A DNA stretch of 64,000 bases from Citrus sinensis. Lineage: Eukaryota; Streptophyta; Magnoliopsida; Sapindales; Rutaceae. Position 1 is the first letter of the stretch. Every line of letters starts with the position of its first letter. The position numbers and the translations under genes were made by a program. The notes beneath the pieces were generated by a model. It ran no database searches and was not told the origin of the DNA. It saw nothing but the letters and a program-made list of their open reading frames with translations. Shown piece after piece: positions 4,942 through 53,136 of the stretch. The stretch spans positions 5,066,001-5,130,000 of the forward strand of contig NC_068562.1 in assembly GCF_022201045.2 (NCBI RefSeq), in the 5' to 3' direction.

Positions 4942-5061
4942 GGCAACCAAGTCCACAGATTCATCTTCCGCTCAATATCCCATATGTAATACATTCAGAG
5001 TGCATAATCTCTCATAACACAGCATCAATCCAAGAATAGTGAGTGAGTGGCCAACTGCACC

Positions 5062-14615: not shown

Positions 14616-17600
14616 TCAAGCAACTACAGTCTCATTCATGGAGACAGATGTTTCTTTTGACTGCTCCTCATTGCAAGCATTACCAACTTTGTATTCGGAT
14701 GCAGATTTGGCAACAAGATTACCTCCACAGCCACCGCCGCAGCCACCACAGCCACCAGTCTTAACCGTGTTTCCACACCCTGCTCCACAACCACCAGAGC
14801 CACACCCACCAGTCTTAACCATGTTCCCACACCCTGCTCCACAACCACCAGAGCCACACCCCCCTCCACATTCACCACCACCACATCCACTGCTTTTCAC
14901 CAGGGCTGCACACCCGCCACCACAACCACCACCACAACCGCCACCACATCCGCCACCACATCCCCCACATCCACCACCGTTCACCATGTTTCCACAACCT
15001 CCACCTCCCCCACCACACCCGCCGCATCCACTACTTTTCACACTTGCTACACGTCCACCACCACAACCACTGCCACATCCTCCACAGCCACCACTGTTCA
15101 ACTCATTAGTCATGTTCTTGTTCAACTCTGGTTCATCTTCTACAGGAGGGATCATTTTGGTACATATGCCCTCCTCTCGTAACCCTTCAACACGATCAGA
15201 TGCACTCTTCATCTCCTTCATAATTTCATCGTTAGCAGTGAAGCCATCATATCCTTCCTTCAAAGCATCTGAAAGTATAAAAGCTGATATGATTCCCAGT
15301 AACAGAAACCATTCTTCTTTTACCTACATTGTTTTAGACAGCAACACACATGCTGTAAGTGATGAATTCCCCTTTGCTTTGATAACATTTGGCAAATAGA
15401 ACTATTGTACCTTGATGACTCCAGATTTCAAGTCAAGCAATGCAATTGCTTTTCCGTACGGATCTGCTGGTGAAAATTCAATGGCTGTCACAAAGTCTTC
15501 TTCAGATCTCTGCTTCTGACAATGTTTGTGTTCATAATCCAGCTTTCTGCCTGGAAAGAGGTTAATCTACTCCAAAGAAGATAAGCACAAAATCATAAAA
15601 TTGATCAAAACTCAAACAAGCAGAAGATTTATGGGAATGGATGTATTAAAATGCAAGGAATAAACTGCAAGTATATTGCATTTGGGAAAAGCACCAAAAC
15701 CTAGCCAGTCAAATTGAAATAATAAATAAACTAAAGTGATTTTCCACCAATATATTAGGAACTCAAACTATGGAAAGCATGATCCTGGTTGGTATGAATA
15801 CAACCCCTTGAGTTCAATGAACGAACTTCTTATGAAATGTATTGCACTAGCTATCACATAAGTTGGCAAATTTAGAGCTCCGGGGTCCATGCAAGTAGTC
15901 CACAGCATGAGCGGGGTTGTATCAACGTTCTAGTTTGCAATAACTATGAACTTATTTATTAAATCAGCTCCACAGGACAGTCTTTGAAGATAAACTTAAA
16001 ACAGTAAAGTGAATGGTGGAAATTCACTTTATAGTGCAAAATTTTACATTCTTCGGGCATATGGATGGGCAATTTTCAAATAAGAATGTACCGAAAATTC
16101 CAACAGGGCCCAGACAGATAAGACAATGGGGACTGAAGAGAAGCAAGAACATGATAGATACATACCATTCTATTGCCTAGGAGCTCAAAGAGATGACCTT
16201 CTTTACTGGATTTCTTCTTGAGACTCCAGCAGCAATCCATCACAGACCACCCAGTCTCAACCATTTCTGCCAAAGTAATTGTTTCACCTGATTCTGTAAC
16301 ACCAATAACTTGCTTCTTCAGAGTGCAGTTATCTCCTCCCTTTTCCTTCTTAGGGTCCCTGAAATGTAACCCAGGCCAGAAAGCAGTATAAGTGTTTCTG
16401 AATATTATACAAGATGCAAAATACCAATAACTGATACAGTTCGAAAGATGGATGGGAAGAGTAAATCATTTGGAAGAGAGATTCTCATAACTTGACAAAA
16501 AACAAGACCAAGAAAGAAGCATTTAACCCCTTTTTATTGCTTAATGATCTAATTGTACCTCATTTGAAGACTGATCACCTCAGACTGAGTTTCATCAATG
16601 ACACGGGTCCAGCTCTTAGCAGGCTGAATCCTTCCAGGAAGGGGGAAAAAGCAAGAACCTTTTGATAAAGGCCGGGAACGAACCATGCGAAGTAAATGTG
16701 GTGCTAGGGTTGGAATGGTAAATGAGACAGCAATTCGGAGGCTGATCGGTTTTGAGCTCACATTGCCAGATCTGGGCACTAGGTCAAACCATTGTTCCAC
16801 TGCAAGTTTAGATATTGGACTTATGAAGTTTTGAAGAGAGAGTGAAGCAGTACCCATTGTCTTTGATGCCCCTGTCATTGGTATTTTAGAAGTTGAATGT
16901 GATACAAGTTCAAACAACAGTTCTCCGGCGGCTTCACACTGAAAGGAAGCAACTTGTTTCATCCCAGATTTGGACAAAATAGTAAGTTTCTGTTTAGCAT
17001 TAAAGAAGATATCAGGTTGTGATTTACTGAAGAAGACAAAAAGGTCTCCCTTGTGATCCTCAGGTAAGTTTTTAACAGCAACAATCTCCACAAAGACCTG
17101 AAAAGGGGAATGAAGAACATTAAAGAATAACCTTGGATAATGAGAGCTGCTGAAATAATATTGGTTCAGGCTGAAGATATCGTCATTCAGGGTGCAAATA
17201 CAAACGCAGAACAAAGAAAATAAGCAGTCTATAGGCACATCAGATCATAGCACTTACCACAAAAAGAGTTGCATATTATCTATAGAGAAAGGCACAACTG
17301 AAATTTTAATTTAATTCTACCAAAGCGCTCGAGTTTTCATTGAACCAGAACTTTCCAAGTTCACAAATGACAAATATCTTCAGATTTGTTATGAACCTGG
17401 CCAGGTCTTATGACAATAGAACATCATTCCCAGCATATAGTTCTTTAAGAAGAACACTCTACAAGACCACTTCAATCCCCGTTGTTACTCTAATGAAGTC
17501 AACTTTTGAGGTGCAGGTTAAGAAATATACTCGATTATTTATTTATTTATTATTGGCAAATACTTGCTTAATCAGTAACATTTAAGCTCTTGCAAGCCAC

Positions 17601-20173
17601 TTGATGATATATCAAAATACAAGAAAACAAGGAAGGAAAAGTGTAGAACATGCAGTTGAGATGTATATAAAGACAAACTTATTCAGGAGAGACAAAAGGT
17701 CAGCAGGAAATTACCTCCGCAATCTTCAAATCCAGAATATGAATAATTTTCTGGCACTCTTTTGATGAAACTACCTCCTTGCTGACAATATCAGATGAGA
17801 AGGGAATCGTAGTGAGTGGAGATGGTGCAGTCCCTCTATACATTGCTCCTGCTTTCGGATACCTTGAGCCAAAGGTCTCTTCCCACTGCTTGGTAGTCCC
17901 AGAAAATCCAGTGTCAAGCTTCTTTCCTTTAGTTCTGTCTTGGTCCATATCATCATGCTCCAATACCTTGCCAAGCGTTTTATTCATATCTTTACAGTAA
18001 GAATCAGGATGCAACTGATGCGTATGCCAGATAAGATCGATGTCATAAGTTGGGACACAAAAGCGTTTTATGGACCTCTCCCTGTTTTTCTTAATCAGGT
18101 GCAGAAATCCCTTATATCTGGCCACAGCTTCCTCAAGAAAGACATCATTGTTAAAATGGGATCTGGATACCTGATATGGAAAAGCAACAAGATAATTAAC
18201 AAGAAAACAAATAAAGTGCCAAATACTAATTTGAAAAATAATATTTGTCAATCAAATTAGGTAGCGAGATAATTATAAGGACCAGTGGCACTCACTTTCA
18301 AAAGAAATTCATGGTCAGGGCCACAGCACCAATTAAACTGTTATGTACTTAAAAGTCCAAAAGGACACATTTACTAAGAACTACATATCATCCCTTTTAA
18401 ATCAGACTAAAAAGAAATGAACTACATATCATGTCTTTTTTTATCAAAAAAAAAAAAAAAAGACTTGAAGTCAGATAGAAATAGTATGGAAAACCATAAC
18501 AAACTCAAACACTCAATATAGTTTATGAAAATCATATTCTTTTGGTTGAAATTCAATGTCAAAATAAGAGTTTTTATAAAATGAGAATTCTTTTTACATT
18601 CAGAGGACTGGTGTATACCAAGCCTTCTATCTAAATCAAATAGTATTATTCATTAGAATCTTAAGATATCAAATCCCAATGAAGAGTAATATATCTTGAC
18701 AGAGTTCCGAAACAAACAGAAACACTGACCATACTTCCAAAGATTGAATTTTTTTTGTAAGTGTATTGCCCAAGCGGTAAAAACATTTTCCCAATTTTGA
18801 TAGAAAATTATTAGTAGCTGCCAAGGAACCAACTGAAGCCAGCTACAGGAGTGTGAAAAGAACTAAAGATGGCCATGACAGCTAGGAAGTCCCTTGCACC
18901 AGGCTCTAAATTGATACTGCTGCCTTTTTCAATAATTAGACTAGCAAAGCAATCAATTATTCATGTGATCTAAAACTAACTATGCAATGAAATAAAATTC
19001 CAGAGTGATTAATTAAGACATAACTACCAGAATAAACTCAACCATAGTGCCTAAAGGAAACACTATCTGTGTCCTCTCCAAACCTGATAAAAGAAGGGAC
19101 TCTGTCTTTTAACAGCTGAAACCAGATCATATTTGGTGAACTTTTCAAGCCCAGAAAGTTCAGCTGAAAAATCCTCCGAAGAAATTTTTGCCAAGTCAAG
19201 TTCATAGGGTTCCTCTGGATATAGTCTATTCCAAATTTCTTCAGTTTCCTTTCTACAAGTTCCTTGAATGGAAGAGACAACATAAGAGTTGTCAAGGTTC
19301 TTCCCATAAAGTTCCTCACAATCAGATTTGTATTGTACCTAAATTAAAGAGGCAAGAAAGTCACTTAGCAACTTTAGATTCCCTAGCCAGCATACGTGTA
19401 TGATTCAGCCAGAAAACTTACGGGGTTGAGCCTGTGACAGTGCCAAATCCATTCACAATCGAGAGGAACAACAAGGCACCCTTTGGAAATGTGGGACTCA
19501 GAATGTTTGGCAAGCAATGGGAGCCAACAAGCATTATACCTGAAATTAACATCAGTATATCAATAAAATGAAAAGTAAAGACCCTAAAGCTGTGTATAAA
19601 TGGATACTTAAGAAGAAAATATCCATATATTCTAACCCCAGTTGTTATAACCTTCACCAGAAAAATACATCTGATAACGAACCAAATAATTTAAAGAGTA
19701 TGAACTCCCGGAGTTGACATGGAGAGTTAAATCCAAAACCAAAAGTGAGTTAATTGGTATCAAAAGAAATAAAGGATACCATAACACAAAATGAATTCAT
19801 GGTTGCGGCAGTCTTATCATCTAACAAAGGAAACCCAAAAAAACAAAAACCATTAGAAAAAGAAAAAGGGACCCTAAGCTGCCTGTGCTCAATATAAAGA
19901 AGGCCAGCAAATAAATATATACCAAAAAAAAAAAAAAAAAAACACAAGCTGGAAAGTTTAGACCTAGAAGAAAGTGGACAGAGTGATTGGAATGCTAAGT
20001 GGTTACCTATAAATTGCCCTTTGAAGGGTAGGGCCTTCGTAGAGCCAACGGTTTCTATCAACAGCAGCAAGAAACTGAAGCTGCTGTTTGGCTGCAGCCA
20101 CAAGGTCATCTACGCTTATCTCAATCTCTTGCGCTTCAGCCCATTCAAACTCTTGTTCCTTCGCCATCTCCAT
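14616..20173 (-). CDS. GRDP1: Glycine-rich domain protein (DUF1399), GRDP1/2 type
   Basis: Eight exons read leftward: 20173-20007, 19539-19422, 19338-19084, 18170-17715, 17097-16559, 16358-16166, 15566-15411 and 15323-14616. Seven junctions close in phase to give 863 residues (known plant members are about 790-820). Order: an N-terminal DUF1399 region with paired WIWHCHRLNP and DLIWHTHQLHP motifs, a C2-like middle (FVEIVAVKNLPEDHKGDLFV), then about 130 residues of Gly/Cys repeats (CGGGCGGGCGG blocks, about 705-838) and a short polar tail ending MNETVVA. The Arabidopsis proteins are implicated in abscisic-acid/stress responses and auxin-linked growth; their biochemistry is unresolved. Exon 7 starts at INLFPGRKLDYE, since a later AG would break the frame. 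The antisense strand of the Gly/Cys exon is open but is only its shadow. Confidence 0.9.
14738..15107 (-). repeat. Gly/Cys codon repeats in the last GRDP exon
   Basis: Repeats of GGN and TGY codons encode the GCGG tail. On the plus strand they read as CCACCA/CCACAACC. Two ~42-bp blocks near 14766-14850 are close copies, a sign of slippage or unequal exchange. Confidence 0.7.
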
Positions 20174-22151: not shown

Positions 22152-22773
22152 GGACCCGCAAGGAAGGGATATAATGCGTGGGACCCGTCACGCTACTCAT
22201 GCTATACTTTGTTCGTTCTCTCCCGTCACTTTTGCGTGTACGAAACAGTTAGACAACTGTGCACTGCCACTGCTAGTAGTACAACCAGAGAGTGAAGTAC
22301 GATTGAGTCGAGCAAATGTCAGTACCAAAATTGCGCACCATCTCAACACGTGTGGTGCGTGAGAACTGCGGCTGTATATATGATGGGCTAGCCTAAACTT
22401 TGTGTACAAACAATTGTCTTTGGGCTGAAAAGAAAATTGGGCCGCTAGCTTAATGGTCTTTCCGTTGTCACTGTGCATCGCGCAATGCATTTCATTCGAA
22501 AATGCTTTAATACACCCATTCTGGAAGCCGTGAAAGAACGCACAAGTTTCCGGTCATCAAATAAACAATCCTAAAACTTTCCATACGAGACAATGACATC
22601 AAAATTCTCCTCTCTTAAGCTCCTCCAAGCAATTTCCCAAAAAACCAAAGATGGTTCCTATGTGTGGGCTATCAAACCCAAACTTCATCGTCACACTAAA
22701 ATTTCCATCTATTCCAGCCTACAGAAGCTTGACAGCCAACATTAGGAGAATTGGTAAAAACTGCAGAGTCACT
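22152..22773. other. 3' spacer of the At4g37920-like gene
   Basis: No gene seen; contains the presumed 3' UTR of the leftward gene. Confidence 0.45.
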
Positions 22774-25404
22774 TCATAATTCCATTGATTCAGTGTCCTC
22801 TTTTGTTTGCATGGTCTGAAACGTGGCTTGCCCCAAATATTCCTCTTCAATAGTTTCCTTGAGGATGAGTAGCCTTTGTATAACCACAGGTTGAGTCATC
22901 TGCTTCGCTTCCCTCATGTCAGTCTCCTCCTTATTCAGGTGGTATGCGTCGAGCATTATTGTAATCCACTTGTGCAGTTCTTTAGGAGTCCTGCTCAAAA
23001 AAGAAAAAAAAAAGGAAAAGAAAAGAAAATGTTATTATACAACCAAATAAAGAGTGCCAAGATTTTGGTAGCAAGAATCCATCTTACGTGTATAGGGCCT
23101 TGGGGTTTTTGGATTCATGTTCACTGCCTGGAGAGAAAGCTGTTGCCAATGCCGAGAATCGTTCTTCGGGATCTATGATGTTTAGTAAGTATTTAAGTAG
23201 CTTTATTTCTTTCGGGGCAATGCCCCTAAGACTGCTCTTTGTGGCTTTATATAGACAATACATTATGTCTTTGACCTGCACTCACAAGTCCAAGGAGAAA
23301 GGATCAGAGAATGGGCAAATTTAGCAAAGAAAAATAATGATCATGAAGGCGCAGAAAAATAATGCAATACAGGAAATTACAAAACAAAAGCTTAATCTAT
23401 GGATAACGCTCTCAAGAGGGAGATTGGTTTTAATGTCACTAATGACGAAAATCAAGCACCTAGACCACTAGACACATGCTTTCTCCTTGATGAAATTTCT
23501 AAGTGTATAATGCAATGAGAAGCTTCTGAATTCTTGTTGATTGTGAAACACTACAGTGGCAGACATCATAATTTGATACGTGACACCTGTTATTCTCCAT
23601 AAATACCACCATCAAGGAATGTAATATAACGCTCAAATGAGAAAATGAATTTAAATTAAGAAAAAAGGATGAAAATAGAGAAATTCAGCTACCAAACAAG
23701 ATGTTGAACTCTCTAATTGAACCTACTCCCCCGCCAGGGCTTCTTGTGATACAAAAGCAGGTCGAACTTAAAAGGCAACACCTATATGCATCAGTGAAAT
23801 ATCACTAAATCAAGTCCGACTTCAAACCTCATTTTTCATAGTCTGTGATGCTTTCGCGGAAGCCCACGCACCGTTTATCAGTAAAATCAATGAAGAGTCA
23901 AGTTCCTTGGCCTTGGCGAGGCTTTTGATTTTTTCACATGCCACATCCACTGAAGGAGAATTGAGTATATCATCAAATTTGGCCTGGGCAGAATCTAGAG
24001 TCTCCACATGCTCCAGCGTCTTATCATAAGCACTAACTGCAGACAAGCATCTAGTCGCCAGTCTAGCCACGGCTGTTCAATCCAATGAAAACACAGAGAT
24101 TAACCTTTTTTGCAAGAAATCCTAAAAAATTCGAAGTGTAAAATGTAATTTCCACTAAAAATATGTGTTAACTTTCAGCTTGGCACCTATAAAGCTCACT
24201 TAAATTCCTGGTTTTTTAGGCACTGACGCTGATCTATGTTTTCATACTTATTTTCAAGATGGATTGCAAGTTAATAGTTATATTAGGCTATTAGCAGCAA
24301 TCTAGATGAGGGTTCTAACTATGGCATAAGGATAAGGAAAAGTCAAGCGAAAGGAGGGACTCTCATAAAGCATACATCCATCACAACCATTAAACTAATC
24401 CAAATATAAATATCACAAATGCTCAAACAGTTACCATCACAGTCCTCCAGACTGTCATGTGTTTCTGAAACGAGAGAGAGGTAGCGGAAAAACTCCCCAG
24501 TGAAGTCTTTGCGTCGCCTTGCAACTACTGCATTTATATCAGTTGGGCTGTCTTGTATCTCCTTAAGAAGTTCATAGTGGCTTTCCATTTCATCATCAAT
24601 CTGCAATTCTAAGTCCTGATTACAAAAACTGGAAGAAGATCTAAACCCAGAAGATTCACTAGTAGAACCGCCATTTGGGCAATGAGAAATGGTAGGTAGC
24701 TAAGGAAATGACTTTTCAAATCAAAGTCCTACTCTATTGAATCCCATGTAATAGTTTGATTTAGTTAGAGGAGTTCTGCAATTCTCAAATGGAGAAGTTA
24801 CACAAAGGCAAAATATTTTCTGCAACCAATAAGAACACAAGAGGCAATAAAGACGTCATTATACCTTCTTCACTTTGCGAGCCAGTGAAATTAATTTCTC
24901 CTTCATGGTAGGCTCACTCTCCTCATCTGCTCGTGTTCGACAGCGATTATAGAAGCTTTCCCGATACTTATTCCAATCCTCCCTAAAAACCAAATACTTT
25001 CTCCATTGCTTAACTCTAGGCTTCTCATTCAAGAACACATCAATAATCTTGTCGCAAAATTGAGTTAAAGTGTAACCCTCAGCAACTTCCTTCTCCGATT
25101 GGTCCTCTTCCATCTCAGCGTTAGCTGTGACTACTCCACATACTTGCCTACCTGCAAGAACATTTTTCTTTTTCTTTAGTAGAGAGCCTTATAAATAAAA
25201 ATTGGTCTTGTTTTGCGTGAACTTACTGGTTCTGTGGCTAGAGCTCAGGGTGTTTGTTTTGAAACTGTGACTGGCTTCTGTTATTTTGAGCTGCTTAGTA
25301 GAGGAAATGGATATGAGAGGAGTTTTGACCGATGTTAAAGATGATTTTTCAAGAGCGGATTTGGGTGTAGAAATTGCTAGCTCGAAGCTTAAGAGATTAC
25401 TCAT
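22774..25404 (-). CDS. Chloroplast protein like At4g37920 (unknown function)
   Basis: Six exons read leftward: 25404-25227, 25151-24865, 24615-24435, 24072-23828, 23275-23088 and 22990-22774, giving 431 residues with all phases closing. The N-terminus (MSNLLSFELAISTPKSAL, Ser/Thr/Lys-rich, no acids for a long stretch except E) is a likely plastid transit peptide. The mature part is helical and charged (EGYTLTQFCDKIIDVFLNEK, KQWRKYLVFREDW, KEIKLLKYLLNIIDPEER). I recognise it as the plant family represented by Arabidopsis At4g37920, named endoribonuclease E-like in some annotations. I see no RNase E catalytic motif and infer no activity. An upstream in-frame ATG at 25440 would add 12 hydrophobic residues. 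It shares a 480-bp head-to-head promoter with NAA40. Confidence 0.85.
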
Positions 25405-25884: not shown

Positions 25885-26616
25885 ATGGAGTCGAGAAACA
25901 GAGAAAAGAAGCGTAAACGAAGAGAGATACTTGAAAAGAAGAAGGCTATTGATGAGTCGCTAAAAGCAGCTTCTGCTCACAAGGATCATCTTACCGCCTT
26001 CCCTTCCTTTCGCCAATATGAAAGGAATGGCCTTTCTGTACATTTAGAATCTGGGTGTGGTGATAAGCTTTCCTCTGCTGAGAAGCAGTACATTCTAAAC
26101 CTCCTTAAGGCCAATATGGAAGGGCCATATGGGTCTGAGTGGCCTGCCGAAGAGAAGGTGAAGCGCAGAGAAATGGTTGCTTCTGAAGCACGCTACATAT
26201 TTGCACGTGAGCTTGATGCTCCAAGTGCAAGTGCCAGTGAGATGTCAAAGACTAATTTTGCTGAAAGCAAGGGATCCATTGTTGGATTTGTGCATTTTCG
26301 TTTTTGTTTGGAGGAAGATGTACCAGTTCTTTATGTTTATGAACTTCAGCTTGAGTCTCGTGTTCAGGGAAAGGGATTGGGGAAATTCTTGATGCAACTG
26401 ATTGAGCTAATTGCCCGTAAGAACCGCATGGGTGCTGTGGTGCTAACAGTTCAAAAGGCAAACTTGTTAGCAATGAATTTTTATTTAAGTAAGCTGAGAT
26501 ATGTAGTATCAAGTATATCACCATCAAGAGTTGATCCATTTACTGGAGTTGAGAAGAGTTATGAAATTCTTTGCAAAGTATTTGATAACAAATCTAAAGC
26601 TTTGTTGCAAGAATGA
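25885..26616 (+). CDS. NAA40: N-alpha-acetyltransferase 40 (NatD, histone H4/H2A)
   Basis: One uninterrupted 243-residue frame. A lysine/arginine-rich N-terminus (REKKRKRREILEKKK) precedes a GNAT fold. Strands include SIVGFVHFRF and VPVLYVYELQLE. The acetyl-CoA-binding motif A is RVQGKGLG (159-166), followed by FLMQLIELIARKN, and motif B includes NLLAMNFYLSKLRY. NatD acetylates the N-terminal serine of histones H4 and H2A, in the cytosol on nascent chains and probably in the nucleus. The absence of introns is notable because its neighbours have many. The frame is intact and it has its own divergent promoter, so I call it functional. Confidence 0.9.
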   Translation: MESRNREKKRKRREILEKKKAIDESLKAASAHKDHLTAFPSFRQYERNGLSVHLESGCGDKLSSAEKQYILNLLKANMEGPYGSEWPAEEKVKRREMVASEARYIFARELDAPSASASEMSKTNFAESKGSIVGFVHFRFCLEEDVPVLYVYELQLESRVQGKGLGKFLMQLIELIARKNRMGAVVLTVQKANLLAMNFYLSKLRYVVSSISPSRVDPFTGVEKSYEILCKVFDNKSKALLQE

Positions 26617-28859: not shown

Positions 28860-31536
28860 ATGGATCGGAAAGATATGTTGATTGAAATGCCTGGGAAGCC
28901 AGTGGATTTCACTGGGGGACTAGGGTTTTCTAACTTAACATACACGGTGACAAAGAAGAAGAAGATTGAAGGGACATGGCTAAAAGAAGAAGTGGACTTA
29001 TTGAACAAGATTACAGGTGATGCTCCGAAGGGCTGCATCACCGCTGTCATGGGGCCTAGTGGCGCAGGAAAATCTACACTATTGGATGGTTTAGCGGGGC
29101 GCATAGCGAGTGGGAGTCTCAAGGGCAAAGTGACTTTGGATGGGAAGGAGACCAGCCCCAGCTTAATAAAAAGGACTTCGGCATATATCATGCAAGAAGA
29201 CAGACTGTTTCCAATGCTTACCGTTTTTGAGACTCTGATGTTCGCCGCTGATTTTCGTTTGGGTCCTATTTCTTGGTCTGATAAAAAGCAGCGTGTGGAG
29301 AATCTCATCGACCAGCTTGGTTTGACGGTATGCTTATGCTAGCAGTTTGTTTCATAGTATTAATAATATATGGGCAGGTTTATAGATAATAAATATCATT
29401 GTTAATTTATTTCATAAAGCCATAAGATAGTTCAGATCATTATTTTTATATATGTTTATTTGTAGACAACTCGGAACACGCACATAGGCGATGAAGGTAC
29501 AAGAGGAGTGTCCGGGGGCGAGCGTCGGAGAGTTTCAATAGGAGTGGACATAATCCACGGACCACCTTTGCTGTTCCTGGACGAGCCTACTTCAGGCCTA
29601 GACTCGACCAGCGCATACAGCGTTATTGAAAAGGTGCACAACATTGCTCGCTCTGGCAGCACAGTGATTCTCACAATCCATCAGCCCTCATCGAGAATCC
29701 AGCTGCTGCTCGATCATCTCATCATTCTAGCTCGCGGGCAACTCATGTTTCAAGGACCACCGAAGGAGGTGACTCTCCATGTAAACAGATTGGGACGAAA
29801 AGTCCCCAAAGGAGAAAACTCGATAGAGTATCTGATTGATGTGATACAAGAATATGATCAGTCCGAGTTTGGTGTTGAGGTAATGGCTGAATTTGCAAGA
29901 ACGGGATTGAGACCACCACCGTTATCTAATGATGAGGGAAATTCAGCAGTGCTTTCAACAGTTCCGGCATCACCAATCACACCAGCTCGCCGGTTTCGGA
30001 ACCAGATGGAAACGAGTGTTAGTGTTGGAGGAGGAACGAATATTGGAAAGCGTCTTCCGTTGCATGCAAGTATAATTGCTGCATCAAAAGAGTTTGACCA
30101 TAGTGTTAGAAGCCCTTATAATAATTCACCAAGGTCCCCATGGAGTGCTAGCCATAGCGGAATTGTGCAAACACTGCGCTTTACGCCATCTACCCAACGC
30201 AATGATAAGAAATTGCACAACCCAATGAGGTAATTAATTAACTCTATCTAATGTTCTTACATCAATTTGTAAATCATTTAATCATATTTATTGAATTCAT
30301 CAATTATCCTATAGTCAATGGACAATGTTAGAGGAAAAACTTTACGTTGACCATATTAAAAAAATATGTATATATTATCGAACTTTATATTTTGCTTGAC
30401 GGTAAATCATAACAGCATAGAATCTAAATCTTTAGTAAAATTAAAAAATAAAAATAAAAATCTAATCATTTTTCTCGTTCTCAAACATTTTAACTTTTTT
30501 TGAGAAATACTGTTCTTATTTTGTATTAATTAATCATGTTATTTGAATTTGCAGTTCATCCCCAGGCTATTATGCATACTCGAGCGACATTCTCCCTGGA
30601 ACCCCAACACCTGGCAGCAGTGACTACACAGTGAATGAAAATGATTACTTAACCCCAGGAGTTGCAAGAAGCACCGCAGCTGAACATCTTGGCCCAAAAT
30701 TTGCAAATTCATTCCTGTCAGAGACATGGATTCTGATGCGCCGCAACTTCAAGAACATCCGCCGCACCCCAGAGCTGTTCCTCTCAAGACTCCTGGTCCT
30801 GACCGTCATGGGCTTCATGATGGCCACCATGTTCGCGAACCCCAAAAATGACTCGCAAGGAATCACAAATCGCCTCTGCTTCTTCGTCTTCACTGTCTGC
30901 ATTTTCTTCTTCTCTTCCAACGACGCTGTCCCTGCTTTCATCCAAGAACGCTTCATTTTCATCCGCGAAACTTCCCACAACGCATATAGAGCCTCTTCTT
31001 ACACCATTGCCGGCCTTATCACTTATCTTCCATTTCTTTTGTTGCAATCCGCTGTCTATGCCGGCATTGTTTGGAAAGCCTTAGGACTGCGCAAGTCCTT
31101 CTTGTATTTCTTGGTGGTTCTATACGTTTCGCTTCTTTCCACCAACTCATTTGTGGTGTTTGTGAGCTCAGTGGTGCCCAATTACATTATTGGTTACGCG
31201 GCAGTCATTGCATTCACCGCATTGTTCTTCTTGTTTTGCGGCTTCTTCGTGACCAGCAACGATATCCCATCTTACTGGGGCTGGATGAACAAGATTTCGA
31301 CAATTACATATCCATTCGAAGGATTGTTGATGAACCAATTTCAGACTAATGAGCCATTTGCCACCGACCGATCTGGAAATATTGTGACAGGATTCGACAT
31401 ATTAGACGCACTTCACATCAAAACCGCGGGATGGGGAAAATGGGAAAAAGTTTTCATTCTCCTGGGATGGGCAGTTTTCTATAGGATTTTGTTTTACATA
31501 ATCCTTCGTTTCTTTTCTAAGAACCAAAGGTCATGA
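28860..31536 (+). CDS. STR2: Half-size ABCG transporter STR2 (arbuscule lipid export)
   Basis: Exons 28860-29327, 29466-30229 and 30555-31536 give 737 residues. Order: nucleotide-binding domain with Walker A GPSGAGKST (65-73), signature VSGGE (171-175) and Walker B LLFLDE (191-196). A long Ser/Pro-rich linker (about 310-440, with RSPYNNSPRSPWS and LPGTPTPGSSDY) is followed by an ABC2 membrane domain of six helices (from about 460) ending RILFYIILRFFSKNQRS. The N-terminus (KPVDFTGGLGFSNLTYTVTK) and C-terminus match what I remember of Medicago STR2 rather than STR. STR and STR2 form a heterodimer in the periarbuscular membrane. They are needed for arbuscule development, probably exporting 2-monoacylglycerols to the fungus. 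Expression should be AM-specific. The gene is intact, so the plant should form AM. Confidence 0.93.
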
Positions 31537-34500
31537 GAAATATTTGTTAATCACTTGCAGGGTGAAAATGGGACCTTACATAATTTTTGCCCATGTTACA
31601 AATTTGTTATTTGTCCAAATCATTATATATGCTCATAGATGAATATGAAATAGTAATAAATTAATTAATGTAGTTTTATTTCTTAAATTAAGGTAAATAC
31701 TGCTGCTTAGTTCTGGTGCCTTGACTCTGTAAACCGATGAAGAAGTGAATATGTATTAAAAATGCGTGCTAAAATTTTTTGGCTATCTATTAACAAGGGA
31801 CAGCCTTTAGTGCTATAGAATATGCCAATCATCATCCATTGGAAACATCGATTGGTTTTGCTGGAAACAGGAAGCCAATTATTTTCCTTTTACTAATTGT
31901 ATGAGAATCTTTTTACTAAATTAACAATTATATACAACAATGCATTGAATATATATCAAATAAAAGTCAATATAAATCAGGCTTTAGTTTGATTTGGACA
32001 AATAAATACATGTCCTAGGCGGCTATATCCAATGATAGTTCTCTTTTTTTATATCTAAATTAAGCGAAATCTCTACAAAAAATATTCAGCTTTTTAGCTT
32101 CATCTGATTAGATATGATTTAAAAAAGAATCTGGCTAATTAATGTTAAATAGCATCAGCTGTAGTTGTTGGGCAATATTCATTCTACAAGTGCTCTTCAC
32201 CTAATTTATGACACGATCGAAGCAGGCAAGGGTATTAAGGGTATTATAAGTAAACTTAACCAAGTGATGACCTTTTAATTCTCTTACGAAGATTGCACTG
32301 GCATATATGGATACTCTTCCTTAATTTTTGAATTATGATTAGTGGAAGGTATTTTTAGAGAACAATAATGTTAGGAATCTCAATATTTGAATCCTCAATG
32401 CCATGTGTTATTTTTTTATTAGACAATATATTTTATAACATGTAAATTACCTAACCACTATCCAATGAAGGGATGCTACATTTGTTGTGACTCAAATTAG
32501 GACTTAAATATTGAATATTAGCATTACTATTTAAAGAATTGACAACTGATTCCAATGAAGTGAATTTCCTTGATGATGACTAAAGATCGATTATTGTTCA
32601 TATAATTGATATTTGGTCATAATCAATCATCTATACAATTGCTTCATCTTTGCACCCTTTAAGTCTTGGATATAAAATGATATTACATATTCATATATAT
32701 AGGTGATTAAACAGCATAAATATACTAATCACCAATAACAAACTTATTCATTCTAGACAATTAAACTCATATTAGAAGACTAGAAGAATATTTCTGGTCT
32801 ATTACATTTCTCTTCTTAACAAGTTGGTCTGAGCATATCTTTAATTGATTATAATTAGAGCCCCTTCAAGAACGGATCCAATATTACCTTAATTCTGTTA
32901 ACTAACAATATTATGCTGTTTGCATCCCACCAAAAAAAACACACACAATATTAGGCTGTTTATTGACGAATCTTCAAACTATAAACGCCTGAGTTTATCA
33001 AGACCAAATATAGCAGAAAAAATATTTTGATCTACTCTTAAATTAAGAGAAATTTTACTCCTATACTTAACATGAGGAGACTTAAAACAATGATTACTTA
33101 CCTTGCGATTCCATAATAATAATAATAATAATTAATAAAGTGAGGTGTGAAGTCAAATTGAACTTCTCAAAACCTATTTACACGCTTCTAAAGTCAGCAA
33201 TCAGAAAGACCAAGTAAATGAAATCGCTAACAATTTAAAAATAATAATCAGTCAGTATGTATCAGCAACTGAAACGCAGACTGTTAATTAATTACATGAA
33301 TTTACGAAGCTTTGTAATGACCGGATTTTGGTTTGCCTGTTTGCTACGAACCTTCGAGCAGGTAACTAGAACAACTGTTGGCATGACCAAGTAAAGACTA
33401 AAGAGACACTAAATGTCAGAAACATCTCATTCTTCCCATCTGGAAAACACATAGCTTCCAATCTCTTGCCACCTCCGCTAATGGGAATTACAACTCATAT
33501 CATTTGTCTGTAAATGGTAGTGGACATTGACACTTCCAATATTGGGCATTATAACATACGTAAATAATTAACTTAAACATACGCGTGTGTGTAGGATTAG
33601 TTTCTTGTAATTAATTTTAATCTAAATTTTGCAGAACAGTTACAAACAATTTGCATGAGTTTTAAATTTTGGCTCGAAAGTTTTAGGCGATGATGTTGTC
33701 AACTGTATACTAATTATGAAATTAAAAATCATTTTTATACATTTTATTTTGATATGTGTTACTAGGTTTGATGATTACGTATATAGTGGTATATTGACTT
33801 GATGGAGATCATTTCGCTTAAGATCTTTCTGTAAGTACTCTCAATGGAGTATGTTATTCATCCTTGATGATGGCGAATAATCTAATCACGATCATATATA
33901 CTTCATCTCTCCATTTGAGAAAGCTTGTTGTTCGTAATCAATTATAGTCAAACTCCAGCCTCACAATCGTCACTTTCTTTGAAATTAATGGGACAAATCG
34001 TGATCTTTGCCCCGGCCTATAATAAAAATTACATGATGTACTGGCAAAAATTGTTAAATTATTTGGCATTACTCCTCAAAAGATCTAAGAAGTAATTATT
34101 AATTATATTTACCTATGCGATCTATGAGTATGCAACTGATGAAGGTGATTAGTGATTGCTTCTGATTAATCCCTTTTCAACTTCTTGAAAAATTAACATA
34201 AATAACTGCAGAAAAGTGGGCTGCCGGTCGCTGGGAACAAACGTTAAATTCGAGTTATATTTATAGAAATTTTTACTTTCTATCAAATCATGTTTCACTG
34301 TATTCATTAAACTTATTTAACCTGTAATTTATATGATACATGCAACTTGGAGTCTTGTTTATTAACGTGACCAAACATGGATAAATTTGAATAAAACTTA
34401 TGAATTGGAGTATTACTAAGAGAAGCTAAAAGCCATATTCATGATGTTGCATGCATGGTAACTGACAAGAAGAAAGACGAAAGTGGTCGAGGATGAAGGG

Positions 34501-34955
34501 TTGCTCCGCCTTAATATTTTAAGTTTTTTTATAACACTGATGCTGACTACTTTCCACTACCGAAACATAAATTAATAACACTATTAATAGCAATATTTTA
34601 ATTAACATGTAAATTGATTATCAACTTTTTTGTATTATTCTAATTCCAACGTCGCTCTCTCATCTTCCCACACTATACGCTCCGGTAATTTCCTAGCTTT
34701 TGCAAGTCAAACTCAAGTTTTCAAACAAAAACTTTCTGTTTTCTTCAAAAATTTCTGGCATTTGTGATGCTCTTTAGTCGCCGTGGGTCCAAGATTAATG
34801 ATTCATCCATAAGGGCTCCTAGATAGCCTAGTAATTATTGATCAATATCTTCAAGAGTTATTGGATATTTGATACAAGAATATTGCATTTGCATGCTGGT
34901 TTGATTATGAGTTTAATAACTCAATGGGGCGGCGTGTGCCTTTTAAGATGAGTTG
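31537..34955. other. STR2-SYMRK spacer
   Basis: About 3.4 kb of AT-rich DNA with no convincing gene. It must contain the STR2 3' UTR and the SYMRK promoter. A short (ATA)n tract lies near 33114-33132 and a lone RY motif CATGCATG at 34450-34457. Confidence 0.5.
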
Positions 34956-34956
34956 A
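34948..34956 (+). promoter_or_regulatory. Minimal uORF overlapping the SYMRK start
   Basis: ATG AGT TGA, a two-codon frame whose stop shares its final A with the A of the SYMRK start (ATGAGTTGATGATG). If the transcript begins upstream, ribosomes would meet it directly before the main start codon. Confidence 0.5.
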
Positions 34957-37900
34957 TGATGGAGAGATTGGAGGATTGGATTGTAAGACGTGTTGACTGT
35001 TTTGTAATCATTTGCTTCATCGTACTAATACGATCTACTTGTGCACAAAAAGGTCAGTATATGAGCTTACTTCGTTCACAAGAATTCAGATGGACAGCTG
35101 ACTAAATTTCTTTGATAATTTTGTTTTTTTTGTTCCTTTTCATTAATTTTAGTTCAGTTCAATTTTATGCAATTTGATCCAAAGATTTATGTTGCTTGAA
35201 TTTAATTTTAAGTCCCACGTCAGTAGCTTAATTAGGTGGAGGCAGAATGATCCTTCTCATTCATTAGCTAAACAATTTCGCGTAAAACATTTAACAGATC
35301 CACTGGAAAAGTGATGATTAAAAATGGAAATCTTATATGCTGGGATGTGAAACCATAATTAAGAATAACTTTATATTTGTTCATGTTGGACGCGATCTTT
35401 ACATACTTACTCAGGGAATCAATAATATGATGGGATCTTTAAGGGCTAATATTGCTTCAAAGTCATTATTAGTGTACGTGCTGACTTAAGATTTTTATTC
35501 TTTTAAATGTAAAATTGTTGGCAGATTTTGTGAGCATAGCATGCTGTGCCGATTCGGATTTTATTGGAAAATATCCCCCTGTAAATTGGAAACCGGACGA
35601 CGCCTGGTTCCCTGATAAAAAAGATTGCCGCGCCATTACAAGGCCGGCTGTGAACAATAAATTTTATGATAGAGTTCTAGATTTTGGCATTGATTCAGGA
35701 AAAAGATGTTATAACTTGTCAACAATTAAGGGTCAAGACTATTTGATACGAGGCACATTCCTTAATGGTGACAATGTGGAGACACCTTTGATTTCATCCT
35801 TTAATGTTCTGGTTGGTGTCACACCGCTAAGTTTGGTGAATTCGACAGAGGACTCCGTGGTAGAGGGAATTTTTAAGGCTGCTAATGATTACATTGATTT
35901 CTGCTTAGACAAGAAGGACGGTGACCCTTACATTTCAGGGCTTGAAGTAAGGCCCCTAAATGATACAGAGTATCTACCTGGGCAATCTGCTAATGTTTTG
36001 AAATTGGTTGGTAGATATGATCTGGGGAGAAGTGACAATGAGTTAAGGTAAGGTATCTGCTTAATTTCCTTACAAGGCCCAAGGAAATGCAATTTACACT
36101 CAAATTGACATGTCTATTACTTGATATTTGGCAGTTTCAGGTACCCTGATGATCCATTTGACAGAATTTGGATACCAAAATTAAGTCCTGAACCAACAAC
36201 TTTCAGTACATCATTCACTACCAACATTTCCGACAACAATGCTAAAGTGACAGTGCCTCTCCAGGTTCTACAAACTGCTTTAACTGACCCGAACAGACTG
36301 ACGTTCCTGCACACTGACCTTGATTCAGGGGATTACAACTACACTCTGATTCTCTACTTTCTTGAACTCAATGACTCTGTCAAGTCTTCAGGGCAAAGGG
36401 TGTTTGATATTCTTATAAACAATGGGAGGAAGAAGGAGAAATTTGACATTTTGGTTCAAGGGTCCAACTATGCAAAGCTTGCTCTGAATGTCACTGCAAA
36501 TGGGTCTCTCAACTTGACCTTAGTTAATGTCATCAATGGGTCTGTGTTTGGACCCATTTGTAACGCTTATGAAATCTTGCAGGTGCGGCAATGGGTTCAA
36601 GAGACTAACCAAGCAGATGGTAATCTCCAATACTTGCTTCCCGCACACAATCTTTATTAGGTGTCATTTTCTTTCTCTGACTTCGTTTTTTTTCAGTGAA
36701 TGTGATAAGGAAGGTGAGGGATGAGTTGAAGAAATATAACAAAGAGAATAGAGTGTTGGAGAGTTGGTCAGGAGACCCTTGCCGTCCTAGTACATGGCAA
36801 GGTGTTTTCTGCAATACAAGAAATGGTTCCATTGCCATCACTGGGCTGTAAGTTCTTTTCTTTAATTCATCTTCTGGAGATTTTGGAAGTTGGGTTCACT
36901 GTGAATATGACGTGCTTATTTTTATCTTGTGAACTTACGTGGGTGATTCCAAATTTTTCTACTGTATGTACCTGTTTAAATACTAATCTGTATGGCTCAT
37001 TATTATCTTGCAGGGATCTTTCTTCAGGTCAAATTCAAGGGATACTTCCTCTTGGTGTCACTGGGCTGACCCACCTAGAGAAATTGTATGATTTGAGTTT
37101 TAAATTCTATCTGTACATTAGTCATGTCAGGATTTTGTATATCCTACTTTACGGAGATTTCCTCTTATGGATCTTTTAGCTGTAGTCTCATGTTACATTG
37201 ACTATTTATCAATATTTTGCTCCTCTTATGGATCTTTTAGCTGTTAGTCTCATGTTACATTGACTATTTATCAATATTTTGCATCTTCCACTTAGATTAT
37301 AGAGCAATCTGCAAGTAGTTTGGCATATGATTCATCATTTGATTGATTTACACTTGATTATCAGGGATTTGAGTCACAATAATCTTGAGGGAAGGCTTCC
37401 AGACTCTCTTTTCTTGCTTCCTCATTTGAAAACATTGTGAGTTGTTTAATACATATTGTGTTCTCATAAATAAAGTAGTAATATGAAAGCTGGGTCTTGG
37501 TTGGTACTTACAGACTTGCTTCTTTCAGATACTTTGGGTGCAATCCTCATTTGGATAAAGATCTTCCTTCCACCTTTAATGGCTCAAGGCTAACCACAGA
37601 GTATGAACTCTACTTCTTATGTCTAAAAGTTGGATATGAAAAGGGGGAACAAGAGAAAAAATAAAACTGATTTATTCTTCATCTATTTTTCAGCCGGGGA
37701 TTTTGTGGCAGTGAAAAATCAACACATAAAGGAATTCTCATAGGCATTGCTGTATGTGGAACCTTCCTATTTACCGTTGCAGTCGGGATCTTTGTAGTTT
37801 GCTTTTACAAAAGAAAATCTATTGCCGGGGGAAAATTAGAAGGGAAAGGATACCCGATGACAAAGAGTGAGTAATTCGATCACCTTTTTGTTCAATGAAA

Positions 37901-40397
37901 TCCGACATATCTGGTTAGGATGTAGGCAAAACTAAATGCATTTTCAATTTCAAATTTAGAAGCTAAAACAAGATTTTCTCATCTGCTACAATCTTTGATT
38001 TTTCCTCTGCTCTATGGATTTTTAATATCAGAAAATTGTGGTTTCTACTTATGTAATTTATAAATCAGAGACGCTAGTGTTTGATAGTTTCATGAGTTTG
38101 CGGACACGATTTAAATTAAAAGAATGAATGAACATATCATCTATACTGAACGTTCTGTTGCCAAAATTAATTCCACCGCTTCAGGTGCACAAGTACATGT
38201 AAAAAAAGTGCCGAAACATGGATCTCAACATGTTTTTAAGTCTCATTTTGTAATGGGTGCATGAAAGAAAAGAATTTTATTTCCATTGAGACGACTAGAA
38301 TAGATCAAAGTATATACTGTCACTCAGCCAGAAATGAGAAGCTCTTTTTCACTCAGTCACAAGGATCATTGTATCTGTGGAAATTTATGGAAGTCTATAT
38401 TTGCTCAAAATGTGATCACTGTCCAGTTTGGCGTTCAGTAGATTCAATTATTTATCTCGTGCATATTCTGATTTGCGAAGTAGCATTCTGATGAAGATTC
38501 TCTATATAATGCAGATTTAGTATTCTCAATAGACAGCATGGATGATCCTGTGAAGCCAATGCCTGTACAGATATTTAGTCTGCAGTATTTAGAAGCTGCA
38601 ACCCAGCAGTATAAAACATTGATTGGTGAAGGAGGCTTTGGATCAGTGTACCGGGGGACTTTACCTGATGGTCAAGAAGTGGCAGTGAAGGTCCGGTCAT
38701 CCACGTCAACCCAGGGAACTCGAGAATTTGAAAATGAGGTGAATTAGTCTTTCCTTAGAGCTGTGCTTATTAGACTTTTCCATGCTGCAATGCATATCAA
38801 CATTCACTGCCTAATCGACACCCCAAATTTCTCTTGGCTCATGGAGCTGACCTGTTATAAATTATCCCTCATCCTCCTATATTTACCACTTGTACATTCT
38901 AAATTATATTGCATTGTATTTATTTTCAATGAAATTCTGATTCATTCTCTCTTTTTATATGGTTTTGACTTGAATATATCCCTTCTGACGACTCTTTATT
39001 AATCTTATCCTACAGTTAAATTTTCTCTCAGCTATTCGGCATGAGAACCTGGTGCCTCTTCTTGGTTATTGTTGTGAAAATGACCAACAAATCCTTGTAT
39101 ATCCTTTCATGTCCAATGGCTCTCTACAGGATCGCCTTTATGGTAATTTTCATCGAAAGCCTATTCGGTTGATTTCTTTTGTTCTTCATCACTTGCTGAT
39201 AACAGATTCTTTACAGGGGAAGCATCAACAAGGAAAACTCTGGACTGGCCAACTAGACTTTCCATTGCCCTAGGGGCTGCTCGAGGTAAGTGATATTCTA
39301 ATTGATCGTCGACCAAAAACAAGATGCATATGAAAATAACTTGACGTATAAAATCATTTCGTTGATCCACATTTTGCTGATCCCAAAATTGAGAAAACCA
39401 GACGTTTATGAGTGTTTTCATTGTTCAGGTTTGATGTATCTTCACACATTTGCTGGAAGAAGTGTCATACATAGGGATGTAAAATCAAGCAATATCCTTT
39501 TGGATCACAGCATGTGTGCCAAAGTGGCAGACTTTGGTTTCTCAAAATATGCTCCTCAAGAAGGGGACAGCGGTTTTTCTCTGGAAGTAAGAGGAACAGC
39601 TGGATATCTGGATCCAGAGTAAGCATTGATAATTTCTTAGAATGATATAAACATTTAACACCATGCTCAATTTCTTTAATCACTGTGGAATGGGGGGGGG
39701 GGGGGGGGGGGGTTTTTTTTTTTTTCAATGCAACTAAATACGTGCCAATGAAATGTCATCACTGCCCAGCTAGTTTATTTGCTTGTTTCTCGTATCATCT
39801 GCCTAACATATGCGAATGCTACTCAGGTATTATTCAACCCAGCATTTATCTGCCAAAAGTGATGTCTTTAGCTTTGGGGTAGTTCTACTTGAAATTATCA
39901 GCGGCCGAGAGCCTCTAAACACTCGCAGACCGCGTAATGAGTGGAGTTTGGTTGAGTGGGTATGTGTTTGTAAAAACGAATTGTCTTGTAATTTTTGTCT
40001 TCCTTTGTTGCGTAGATGAAATAATCTAACAAATGGGATATAAATGCAGGCGAAACCCTTCATAAGGGAGTCAAGGATTGATGAAATAGTGGATCCCAGC
40101 ATAAAGGGAGGGTACCATGCGGAGGCAATGTGGAGAATGGTGGAGGTGGCACTGGCATGTATTGAGCCCTTCTCGGCTTATCGGCCAAGCATGGTTGACA
40201 TTGTCCGTGAGCTTGAAGATGCTTTTATCATAGAGAACAATGCATCTGAATACATGAAGTCCATAGACAGCATAGGAGGATACAGCATAGGCGGATCAGC
40301 TCGTTACTCCAGGAGAATTGTTATACCGCCTACTCCTACTGCAACTGAATCATCACTTGTTAACTCACAAACCATCGTTCCTCCTGAGCCTAGATAA
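34956..40397 (+). CDS. SYMRK: Symbiosis receptor-like kinase SYMRK (DMI2/NORK)
   Basis: Fourteen exons: 34956-35052, 35525-36047, 36141-36619, 36697-36847, 37014-37085, 37365-37436, 37529-37600, 37694-37866, 38515-38738, 39016-39142, 39217-39285, 39429-39618, 39827-39959 and 40050-40397. All phases close, giving 909 residues. Order: signal peptide (1-30), malectin-like domain (from about 33 to 350), GDPC motif (392-395), LRRs on three 72-nt exons, one membrane helix (about 502-526) and a kinase. Kinase landmarks are GEGGFGSV (584-591), Lys605, HRDVKSSN with Asp703, DFG (721-723) and [11 protein letters not shown]. The tail [11 protein letters not shown] is diagnostic of SYMRK. It is the plasma-membrane co-receptor of the common symbiosis pathway for AM (and nodulation where present), acting upstream of nuclear calcium spiking. 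This is the long, three-LRR form. An alternative acceptor 6 nt upstream of exon 3 would add two residues. Confidence 0.95.
37158..37281. repeat. ~61-bp tandem duplication in a SYMRK intron
   Basis: A block beginning CTCTTATGGATCTTTTAGCT and ending CAATATTTTGC occurs twice in a row in the intron between LRR exons 5 and 6. The copies are almost identical, so the duplication is recent. Confidence 0.85.
39691..39725. repeat. Poly(G)-poly(T) tract in a SYMRK intron
   Basis: About 21 Gs followed directly by about 14 Ts in the intron before exon 13. Homopolymer length may be inaccurate in the assembly. Confidence 0.7.
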
Positions 40398-42260: not shown

Positions 42261-43016
42261 TTAAGTAGTGAAAAGATGTGGGTTGGCTGATGCAGTTCCC
42301 ACTTGGACTTCGAGCAGTTCTAAACGACGTTCTAATGTATCTAGCTTCTCATTCAACAACGCCAATTTGCTCTTTGTTGTAGCCTCTAAATTAGCATCAA
42401 ACAATGGTCCAATAAGTAAAAGTCAAATCAAACTCACTTTAACACATGCACAAAATCAAATACCGCCTTGAAGATCAAATGAGAACAGACAGAGTAACTT
42501 CCAAAGTGACTCAAATTACAACTCAAAGTTACTCAATGTGGATTTAATGAGCGAACAAACTTTATATGTTGCTTCATGTAAGTAAATTAGATTCCAGTAA
42601 TGTGCAGAAACATGCAAGAACATTACAAGCTTAAGTTGTGCCTCAACATTTCTGAAAACGTAAATCAATGGTCAAAATTTCAGATTTTTTTTTTCCAATC
42701 GACATCTAGCCCTAATCTTGATAAAACAAATTTAATTATTAAGGGCATAAATTTTGTAACCATCTGATCTGAATACGAAATGGATATTAAGAAGTTTCAA
42801 ACGGTCCACTATTATCTCAAACGATCGGCTCATAGTAGTTATATTTATATGAAGATGAAAAGAAGAAGAATGGAAATAAATACCAAACTGGACAAGGAAT
42901 TCGAAGAGGCGGCGAACGTTGAGAGAAATGTGAGAGATAAACTCGCGATTTTCCCAATCAGCTTGAACAGCTATTCCTACATTCACTGCGTTTGTTATTC
43001 CTCCAGCTCTCGCCAT
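42261..43016 (-). CDS. BRK1: BRICK1 (HSPC300), SCAR/WAVE complex subunit
   Basis: Two exons, 43016-42884 and 42385-42261, give 85 residues, the exact usual length. The sequence starts MARAGGITNAVNVGIAVQAD, continues to a heptad-rich helix (RRLFEFLVQF joined across the intron to EATTKSKLALLNEKLD) and ends NPHLFTT. BRK1 is the smallest subunit of the SCAR/WAVE complex, which activates ARP2/3 actin nucleation at the cell cortex and controls pavement-cell and trichome shape. An in-frame ATG two codons upstream (43022) would add Met-Arg; the conserved family start is at 43016. The gene is head-to-head with PEX10. The coding exons are tiny and separated by a 498-bp intron. Confidence 0.95.
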
Positions 43017-43839: not shown

Positions 43840-46664
<2,825 letters not shown>

Positions 46665-47662: not shown

Positions 47663-49688
<2,026 letters not shown>

Positions 49689-52100: not shown

Positions 52101-53136
52101 CTTATATAACCTTACACGACCAAGTCGTGTGTTATATGATGAAATTATAATCGGCATAATCCATCACATTTTCACAATTTGCATGTAGCAAAACAACTAG
52201 AATTTGTTTTCGAACATGTTATAAAAGACTCACAGCTAATTAATCTATTTTTTCAATATAAAACCCTAATTTTTTATTTTTTTTCCCCAAATATCAACAA
52301 GAAAACTAATTACAAGGAATTACTTACCTCAAGTAGTTACATTCTAACAATTTTGGAGTAAAGGATTAACTCTCGCCGGCGATTGTGTAGTGACAAACTA
52401 GGCTTATCTTTCTCAGTTGTGGCATCTTCTCCTTCTCAAGCTCAGTTTGCTCGTATTGATGTTCGATTTAATATGTATGGACAATGAATGTTTGTTTGAG
52501 TAGAGGTGATGTTGGTGAGGAAATTGAGAATGGAGGATGAGTTTTTGTTTGTTTGAGCAGAAGTGATGCCTTTGAGTTGAAGTGTTTTTAAATAAGAATA
52601 GTTTAATAATTTCCTCTCAGTTTTTAAAGAGTATTGATAAAAATTTTGGCAAATTCTAATTTTAGGGTATTAAGATAAATTTTAAAGTATCAAGGTGTAT
52701 CTGCTGCAATTCCCGCTTGATTATCTTCCTGCCACAGCTATCTTAAGAGGGGAAAAAGGAAAAAATGTACTAAAGAAGCATACAAATTCCCCACATGGAG
52801 TAGGTGACAATATTAACCTGAGGTGAGATCTGAAAGAAATCCATCGTCATAAGCTGTGCGAAATTTTATTGAGTCCATCCATGTATAATGAATGTCGCTT
52901 TTTTTTTGTTTTGCTTTGGGGAACAGTAATGTATATCACTTCATAGGAAGAAAGAAGCAACAAAATGTGTTTGTTTCAGGTAGTATAGCCCCTAAAAAAT
53001 GTTCCCTTACAACAGCATTTCGATATTTAGCTTATGAACGGCGTAAAAGAATACCCTTTTCTTTTTGTTTCTTCTGAAAATGGACAAAGAACAAGGCCGC
53101 ACGTCCTTTTCAGAACAGAAAACGACATAAGAGAAC
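52101..53136. other. Spacer 3' of the oligopeptidase gene
   Basis: AT-rich; its right part is probably the 3' UTR of the leftward oligopeptidase gene. No gene seen. Confidence 0.45.

What the first reader, a model, noticed from the sequence alone, without database searches (positions are those of the whole stretch)
28860..40397. STR2 and SYMRK are adjacent: a two-gene arbuscular-mycorrhiza cluster
Seen: an intact half-size ABCG gene and an intact SYMRK gene are consecutive, same strand, 3.4 kb apart, with no gene between. Known: STR2 acts late (lipid supply across the periarbuscular membrane) and SYMRK acts first (signal perception), so they share a symbiosis but not a step. I recall that DMI2 and STR2 are also neighbours in Medicago, unverified here. 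Inference: their linkage may be selected through co-regulation, shared chromatin or co-loss, which would make it an unusual plant cluster of a receptor and a transporter from one trait.
Basis: partly seen in the sequence, partly recalled or inferred. Interest (0 to 1): 0.85.

Follow-up and report, generated by a model that had tools for sequence, protein, structure and literature searches.

The report
Neighbouring mycorrhiza genes, ordinary conserved synteny
Two plant genes needed for partnership with root fungi really do sit next to each other here, as they do in Medicago, but they are not neighbours in rice or barley and are switched on differently, so this looks like old inherited gene order rather than a purpose-built cluster.

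Summary
An intact three-exon half-size ABCG gene (28860-31536) and an intact 14-exon SYMRK gene (34956-40397) are consecutive on the + strand, 3.4 kb apart, with no gene detected between. SYMRK is firm; calling the ABCG gene STR2, not STR or a sister ABCG, is less firm. The recalled Medicago adjacency is borne out by consecutive locus numbers, Medtr5g030910 (STR2) and Medtr5g030920 (DMI2).

The 'selected cluster' reading is not supported. Published loci place the pair 3,765 locus steps apart on rice chromosome 7, on different barley chromosomes and on different petunia scaffolds. So 2 of the 5 AM hosts I could place are adjacent. Lupin lost STR2 but kept SYMRK. In petunia STR2 is silent without the fungus and needs RAM1; SYMRK barely does.

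Best reading: an inherited gene block (GRDP, acetyltransferase, STR2, SYMRK, BRICK1, RPS3) in which two mycorrhiza genes happen to be neighbours.

Unexpected: this SYMRK lacks one LRR exon of the 15-exon eurosid gene, matching the shorter form of tomato and poppy. If the plant is not a eurosid, the adjacency predates the eurosids.

The parts
28860..31536 (+). Half-size ABCG transporter gene, STR2-like; 3 exons (28860-29327, 29466-30229, 30555-31536), 737 aa, intact
   Evidence: Closest solved chain is ABCG16 (467 bits; Arabidopsis by recall), then ABCG2 (255). STR2 rather than STR rests on position next to SYMRK as in Medicago and on recalled protein length.
31537..34955 (.). Interval between the two genes, 3,419 bases, GC 0.31, no gene found
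   Evidence: longest open stretch 60 aa; no Rfam match; no Pfam match above cut-off; GC.
34956..40397 (+). SYMRK gene; 14 exons, 911 aa, intact; signal peptide and transmembrane stretch (by eye), malectin-like/NEC region, GDPC motif (name recalled), two LRRs plus one imperfect LRR, kinase
   Evidence: ATG at 34956 or 34959.
37014..37600 (+). SYMRK LRR exons 5-7, 72 nt each (37014-37085, 37365-37436, 37529-37600); four such exons (71, 68, 71, 71 bp) are listed for the 15-exon Trema/Parasponia gene
   Evidence: by eye no LRR-like sequence in the three forward frames of introns 4-7.
14616..20173 (-). GRDP-type gene (GRDP-like plus C2_GRDP domains plus glycine-rich tail), part of the block
   Evidence: start codon 20150-20173; 3' end by eye.
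22780..25403 (-). Gene that I recall as resembling Arabidopsis At4g37920 (RP8/PD1/CDB1); identity not tested, ends by eye
   Evidence: ORFs; no Pfam match for the two ORFs scanned.
25885..26616 (+). GNAT acetyltransferase gene, NAA40-like (name recalled), one open reading frame
42261..43016 (-). BRICK1 gene, two exons joined by eye, first gene found downstream of SYMRK
   Evidence: open frame to 42264, then stop; the only two matches are chains named Brk1 and BRICK1; start codon.
43840..46664 (+). RING-finger gene, PEX10-like (name recalled)
   Evidence: RING domain; ends.
47663..49688 (+). Ribosomal protein S3 gene
   Evidence: Ribosomal_S3_C and KH_2; ends.
53100..60096 (-). M3 peptidase gene of the thimet oligopeptidase type; outer limits approximate
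   Evidence: TOP_N and Peptidase_M3; start codon candidates.

Best explanation
STR2 and SYMRK are two independent transcription units that are neighbours because they lie in one old block of dicot gene order, inherited by this plant and by Medicago. SYMRK makes the plasma-membrane receptor kinase of the common symbiosis pathway, present before the fungus arrives. STR2 is induced in arbuscule-containing cells by the RAM1/WRI module and pairs with STR, most likely to export lipid across the periarbuscular membrane. Nothing found here requires their linkage. Shown: structure, order, spacing, Medicago adjacency by locus number, non-adjacency in rice and barley by locus number. Inferred: common descent of the adjacency and absence of a function for it.
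For: Consecutive loci in Medicago. The pair is embedded in a run of ordinary genes (GRDP, acetyltransferase, BRICK1, RING, RPS3, M3 peptidase). In Arabidopsis GRDP1 is At2g22660 and BRK1 is At2g22640, two numbers apart, so part of the block seems to survive there without the two genes. The STR2-SYMRK gap (3,419 b) is larger than the gaps on either side (2,243 b to the acetyltransferase gene; 1,863 b to BRICK1), so they are not packed together. Not adjacent in rice, barley, petunia. Separate loss in lupin. Different control in petunia; in bean PvTOR-RNAi roots STR2 rose while SYMRK did not change. Two genes on one strand with 3.4 kb between cannot share a divergent promoter.
Against: The pair is adjacent in two of the three dicots with both loci known (window, Medicago; not petunia), possibly across the eurosid boundary. 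Both genes rise during AM in barley, though unlinked there. Only five AM hosts could be placed: one read directly, three by locus number, one by scaffold of a draft. Common descent was not tested by aligning the Medicago block, whose flanking genes I have not seen. Which Arabidopsis GRDP is the orthologue was not tested.
Confidence: 0.78

Rival explanations
1. The linkage is kept by selection: a two-gene AM cluster held together by shared chromatin or enhancers, or by linked inheritance.
For: Adjacent here and in Medicago; both genes AM-induced in barley. In the interval AW-box-like matches are 4 against 0.9 expected, CTTCTTG 2 against 0.5 and W-box 6 against 3.5.
Against: Not adjacent in rice, barley or petunia. 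Different dependence on RAM1 and different basal expression. No MYCS, CTTC-core, AMCYC-RE or CYC-RE-like match in the four stretches scanned, and P1BS is below expectation in each. The AW-box pattern is loose and exceeds expectation in all 4 stretches (2, 4, 2 and 1 matches, expected 0.8, 0.9, 0.3 and 0.4); 9 motifs were tested in each.
Confidence: 0.1
2. The linkage matters only in loss: one deletion removes both genes, making the loss of AM quick and irreversible in lineages such as Brassicaceae.
For: Arabidopsis GRDP1 and BRK1 are two locus numbers apart where I annotate four genes between them in the window. Delaux 2014 reports symbiosis-specific genes missing from otherwise conserved syntenic blocks in four non-host Brassicales.
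Against: Lupin lost STR2 and kept SYMRK, so the genes can go singly. At most one numbered locus lies in the Arabidopsis gap, so at least one of the other two window genes is missing there too, as ordinary fractionation after polyploidy would give. Breakpoints were not seen.
Confidence: 0.1
3. The ABCG gene is not STR2 but STR or another half-size ABCG of the sister clade.
For: No STR or STR2 sequence was obtained for a tree; the best solved relative is ABCG16.
Against: Position next to SYMRK as in Medicago STR2; 737 aa is close to the recalled length of STR2 and shorter than that recalled for STR.
Confidence: 0.06
4. The two adjacencies (window and Medicago) arose independently by chance.
For: Non-adjacency in rice, barley and petunia means that the pair is not universal.
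Against: Chance for a given pair is about 7e-5 per genome.
Confidence: 0.03

Closest known systems
Medicago truncatula STR2-DMI2 neighbours (Medtr5g030910, Medtr5g030920)
   Same: Same two genes with consecutive locus numbers.
   Different: Strand, spacing and flanks in Medicago were not seen; Markmann 2008 gives the 15-exon full-length SYMRK for all eurosids tested, this gene has 14 exons.
NORK/DMI2 microsynteny block (Kevei 2005; Delaux 2014 synteny tables)
   Same: By title and passages, conserved blocks around symbiosis genes compared between hosts and Arabidopsis or other Brassicales.
   Different: Neither was checked for STR2.
Plant specialised-metabolism gene clusters
   Same: Non-homologous genes of one trait side by side.
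   Different: No shared pathway step, different expression control in petunia, not adjacent in rice, barley or petunia; only two genes.

Membership tests
SYMRK/DMI2/NORK | Kinase domain closer to SYMRK than to other plant receptor kinases | tested here: met
   575.8 and 573.8 bits to two SYMRK kinases, next best 253.6 FERONIA.
SYMRK/DMI2/NORK | Malectin-like (NEC) region, LRRs, TM, kinase in one intact gene | tested here: met
   Pfam; open reading through 14 exons; TM by eye.
Full-length eurosid SYMRK (Markmann 2008) | 15 exons, three LRRs plus one imperfect | tested here: not met
   14 exons, three 72-nt LRR exons in all, against four in Trema/Parasponia; no relic seen in introns 4-7. No RNA to confirm the model.
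Intermediate SYMRK (tomato, poppy) | NEC present, two LRRs | tested here: met
   definition from passages of Markmann 2008.
STR2 | Half-size ABCG with NBD then TMD | tested here: met
   ABC_tran 48-199, ABC2_membrane 467-673.
STR2 | Groups with STR2, not STR or ABCG1/2/6/16/20, in a tree | not tested
   No STR/STR2 sequences were obtained; the solved-structure search returned none named so among 27 listed.
STR2 | Expressed only in arbuscule-containing cells, RAM1-dependent | not testable with these tools
   Reported for petunia, not measurable from this window.
Functional gene cluster | Linkage conserved across hosts | tested here: not met
   2 of 5 AM hosts with both loci known.
Functional gene cluster | Co-expression of members | tested here: inconclusive
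   From published data: both rise in AM barley, but basal level and RAM1 dependence differ; unmeasured in this plant.
Functional gene cluster | Shared chromatin domain | not testable with these tools
   No Hi-C or histone data.

The most novel reading that the evidence does not exclude
STR2-SYMRK is an ancient eudicot pair, older than the eurosids, retained longer than neighbouring adjacencies and acting as a single loss unit, so that one deletion takes out both fungal perception and lipid supply when a lineage abandons mycorrhiza.
Probability: 0.1. Interest if true: 0.6.

Novelty: new member of a known kind. Interest (0 to 1): 0.28.

Why it matters
If the linkage were selected it would be an unusual plant cluster of a receptor and a transporter from one trait. 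As it stands it is a case of how two genes of one trait can be neighbours by inheritance. The block gives a ready frame (GRDP to BRICK1) for comparing breakpoints where mycorrhiza was lost, and the 14-exon SYMRK is a useful data point for when the extra LRR exon of the nodulation-competent form appeared or vanished.

Tried and rejected
Whole-genome search of the window's own genome: none held. The sequence collections are described as viral, bacterial/archaeal, phage, plasmid and metagenome, so I did not scan them; gene order elsewhere came only from locus numbers printed in papers.

Papers sought and not held: four ids (meant as Zhu 2006, Kevei 2005, Zhang 2010, Radhakrishnan 2020). No STR2 locus was seen for tomato or bean, and the passages of the maize and foxtail millet papers gave no loci for the pair, so those species were left out of the count.

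Cis-element search near both genes: no convincing AM element; the AW-box-like excess was judged noise, though the interval also holds 2 CTTCTTG (0.5 expected) and 6 W-box matches (3.5 expected). The controls in that script were first-order Markov resamplings, not exact dinucleotide shuffles. Motif strings were recalled, not taken from a call.

Rejected: that the adjacency is an artefact of a missed gene, and that SYMRK is a pseudogene because an LRR exon is missing (frame open).

Whether the adjacency has been stated in print: the searches led to no such statement that I saw, but I read passages in only 8 of the 21 papers listed and in both papers listed, and Kevei 2005 and Zhang 2010 were not readable. 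I make no claim that it is unpublished.
Full report
What is there. The window reads as plant nuclear DNA. Two complete genes lie side by side on the + strand. The first (28860-31536) has three exons and encodes a 737-aa half-size ABCG transporter, nucleotide-binding domain first. Its best solved relative is ABCG16 (467 bits; Arabidopsis by recall), then ABCG2 (255). The second (34956-40397) has 14 exons with GT-AG introns and encodes 911 aa with a malectin-like region, LRRs and a kinase. Two SYMRK kinases lead the solved-structure list by more than 300 bits. The 3,419-base interval has no open stretch over 60 aa, no Pfam family at its cut-off and no Rfam match.

How sure are the names. SYMRK is secure. 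STR2 is probable: no STR or STR2 protein was obtained for a tree, so the choice of STR2 over STR rests on its place beside SYMRK, as in Medicago, and on recalled length. Using place as evidence for the name makes the Medicago comparison partly circular, and I mark it so.

Is it more than chance. A named pair is consecutive with probability near 7e-5. The lupin paper's Table 4 has 53 rows with 56 Medicago locus numbers (one row, DELLA2, has none). Among them there are two consecutive pairs: the PDR1 paralogues and STR2-DMI2. The two SbtM paralogues are two steps apart and LIN-RPG 487 number units apart. Expected by chance are 0.06-0.10 consecutive pairs, or 0.4-1.0 if 138 to 170 AM genes are allowed (138 is recalled, 'more than 170' is from an abstract; 30,000 to 50,000 loci assumed). 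So the pair is mildly unusual among the famous genes and unremarkable among all AM genes.

Where else. Medicago: consecutive locus numbers (passages and section 9 of PMC5316927; passages of PMC7317859). Rice: Os07g0191600 and Os07g0568100, one chromosome, 3,765 steps apart (passages of PMC4626465; arithmetic). Barley: potential orthologues on 2H and 3H. Petunia: SYMRK on Scf00703, two STR2 copies on Scf00286 and Scf00378 (passages of PMC5549340), a draft assembly in which a break cannot be excluded. With the window, 2 of 5 AM hosts are adjacent. Passages of a tomato (PMC13249782) and a bean paper (PMC8166948) gave SYMRK but no STR2 locus, and those of a maize and a foxtail millet paper gave neither. 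Lupin, which lost AM, kept SYMRK (Lup025527.1) and lost STR2; Delaux 2014 says the same of lupin's common-pathway and AM-specific genes as classes (passages).

Shared control. In barley wild type DMI2 reads 11.1 and 57.0 CPM without fungus and 72.8 and 181.0 with it (17 and 26 dpi); STR2 reads 0.0 and 0.1 without and 26.2 and 83.3 with. Both rise, though on different chromosomes, so linkage is not needed for that. In petunia STR2 is off without fungus and off in ram1, while SYMRK is only marginally affected. In bean PvTOR-RNAi roots SYMRK is unchanged and STR2 goes up. Around the window pair I found no MYCS, CTTC-core or AMCYC-RE element. AW-box-like matches exceed expectation in all four stretches scanned, so I read them as noise; the interval also has 2 CTTCTTG (0.5 expected) and 6 W-box matches (3.5 expected).

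The block. The neighbours that I identified, in order, are a gene end with an Fn3-like domain (beta-xylosidase by recall), a bromodomain/BET gene, a GRDP gene, an At4g37920-like gene (recalled), an acetyltransferase gene, STR2, SYMRK, BRICK1, a RING gene that I recall as PEX10, RPS3 and an M3 peptidase. In Arabidopsis GRDP1 is At2g22660 and BRK1 is At2g22640 (passages of PMC4299439 and PMC12551455), so part of the block seems to persist there with the middle missing; one locus number lies between them, and I did not test which GRDP is the orthologue. Delaux 2014 reports the same kind of pattern for symbiosis-specific genes in four non-host Brassicales (section 6). Whether both genes went in one event is not shown.

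A finding outside the claim. The 15-exon SYMRK of Trema and Parasponia lists LRR exons of 71, 68, 71 and 71 bp (passages of PMC10668435); the window gene has 72, 72 and 72. The odd-length second LRR exon is the likely missing one, and I saw no relic in the forward frames of introns 4-7. Other exons differ in length too (for example 193 and 86 bp listed against 173 and 69 here), so the match of exons is by order and domain, not by exact length. Markmann 2008 found the 15-exon, three-LRR form in all tested eurosids and shorter forms outside them, with tomato and poppy intermediate (passages). The tomato and rice forms restored AM in Lotus but not functional nodulation; rice SYMRK gave rare small nodules. 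So this plant is either outside the eurosids, which would make the STR2-SYMRK neighbourhood older than they are, or a eurosid that lost the exon. I could not name the plant. The donor after exon 11 is GT, where the Trema study reports GC at the matching intron 12 in most dicot species.

Verdict. Confirmed observation, verified Medicago recollection, unsupported cluster inference. The best account is inherited gene order.

Noticed in passing
37014-37600: SYMRK has three LRR exons instead of the four listed for the 15-exon Trema/Parasponia gene; the second LRR exon appears absent.
   Followed up: partly
39286: SYMRK intron after exon 11 begins with GT; the matching intron 12 begins with GC in most dicot species according to the Trema study.
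   Followed up: partly
37160-37282: 62-bp tandem duplication (98% match) inside SYMRK intron 5, the intron where the missing LRR exon would lie.
   Followed up: partly
62332-64000: Tandem array of a 185-bp unit, about 9 copies at 86% match, reaching the window end.
   Followed up: no
50637-50732 and 51968-52094: Two short arrays sharing a GTCGTGTA-like core with different periods, about 1.2 kb apart.
   Followed up: no
20990-21075 and 22045-22155: Two copies of a small element with ATCTTACATGCATGTAAGAT at both ends, MITE-like by eye.
   Followed up: no
5061-5589: Small three-exon gene for a cysteine-rich tail protein (CYSTM-like by recall), seen by eye only.
   Followed up: no
14616-15323: Glycine- and cysteine-rich repeat tail, probably of the GRDP gene on the minus strand, with several overlapping tandem repeats.
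   Followed up: no
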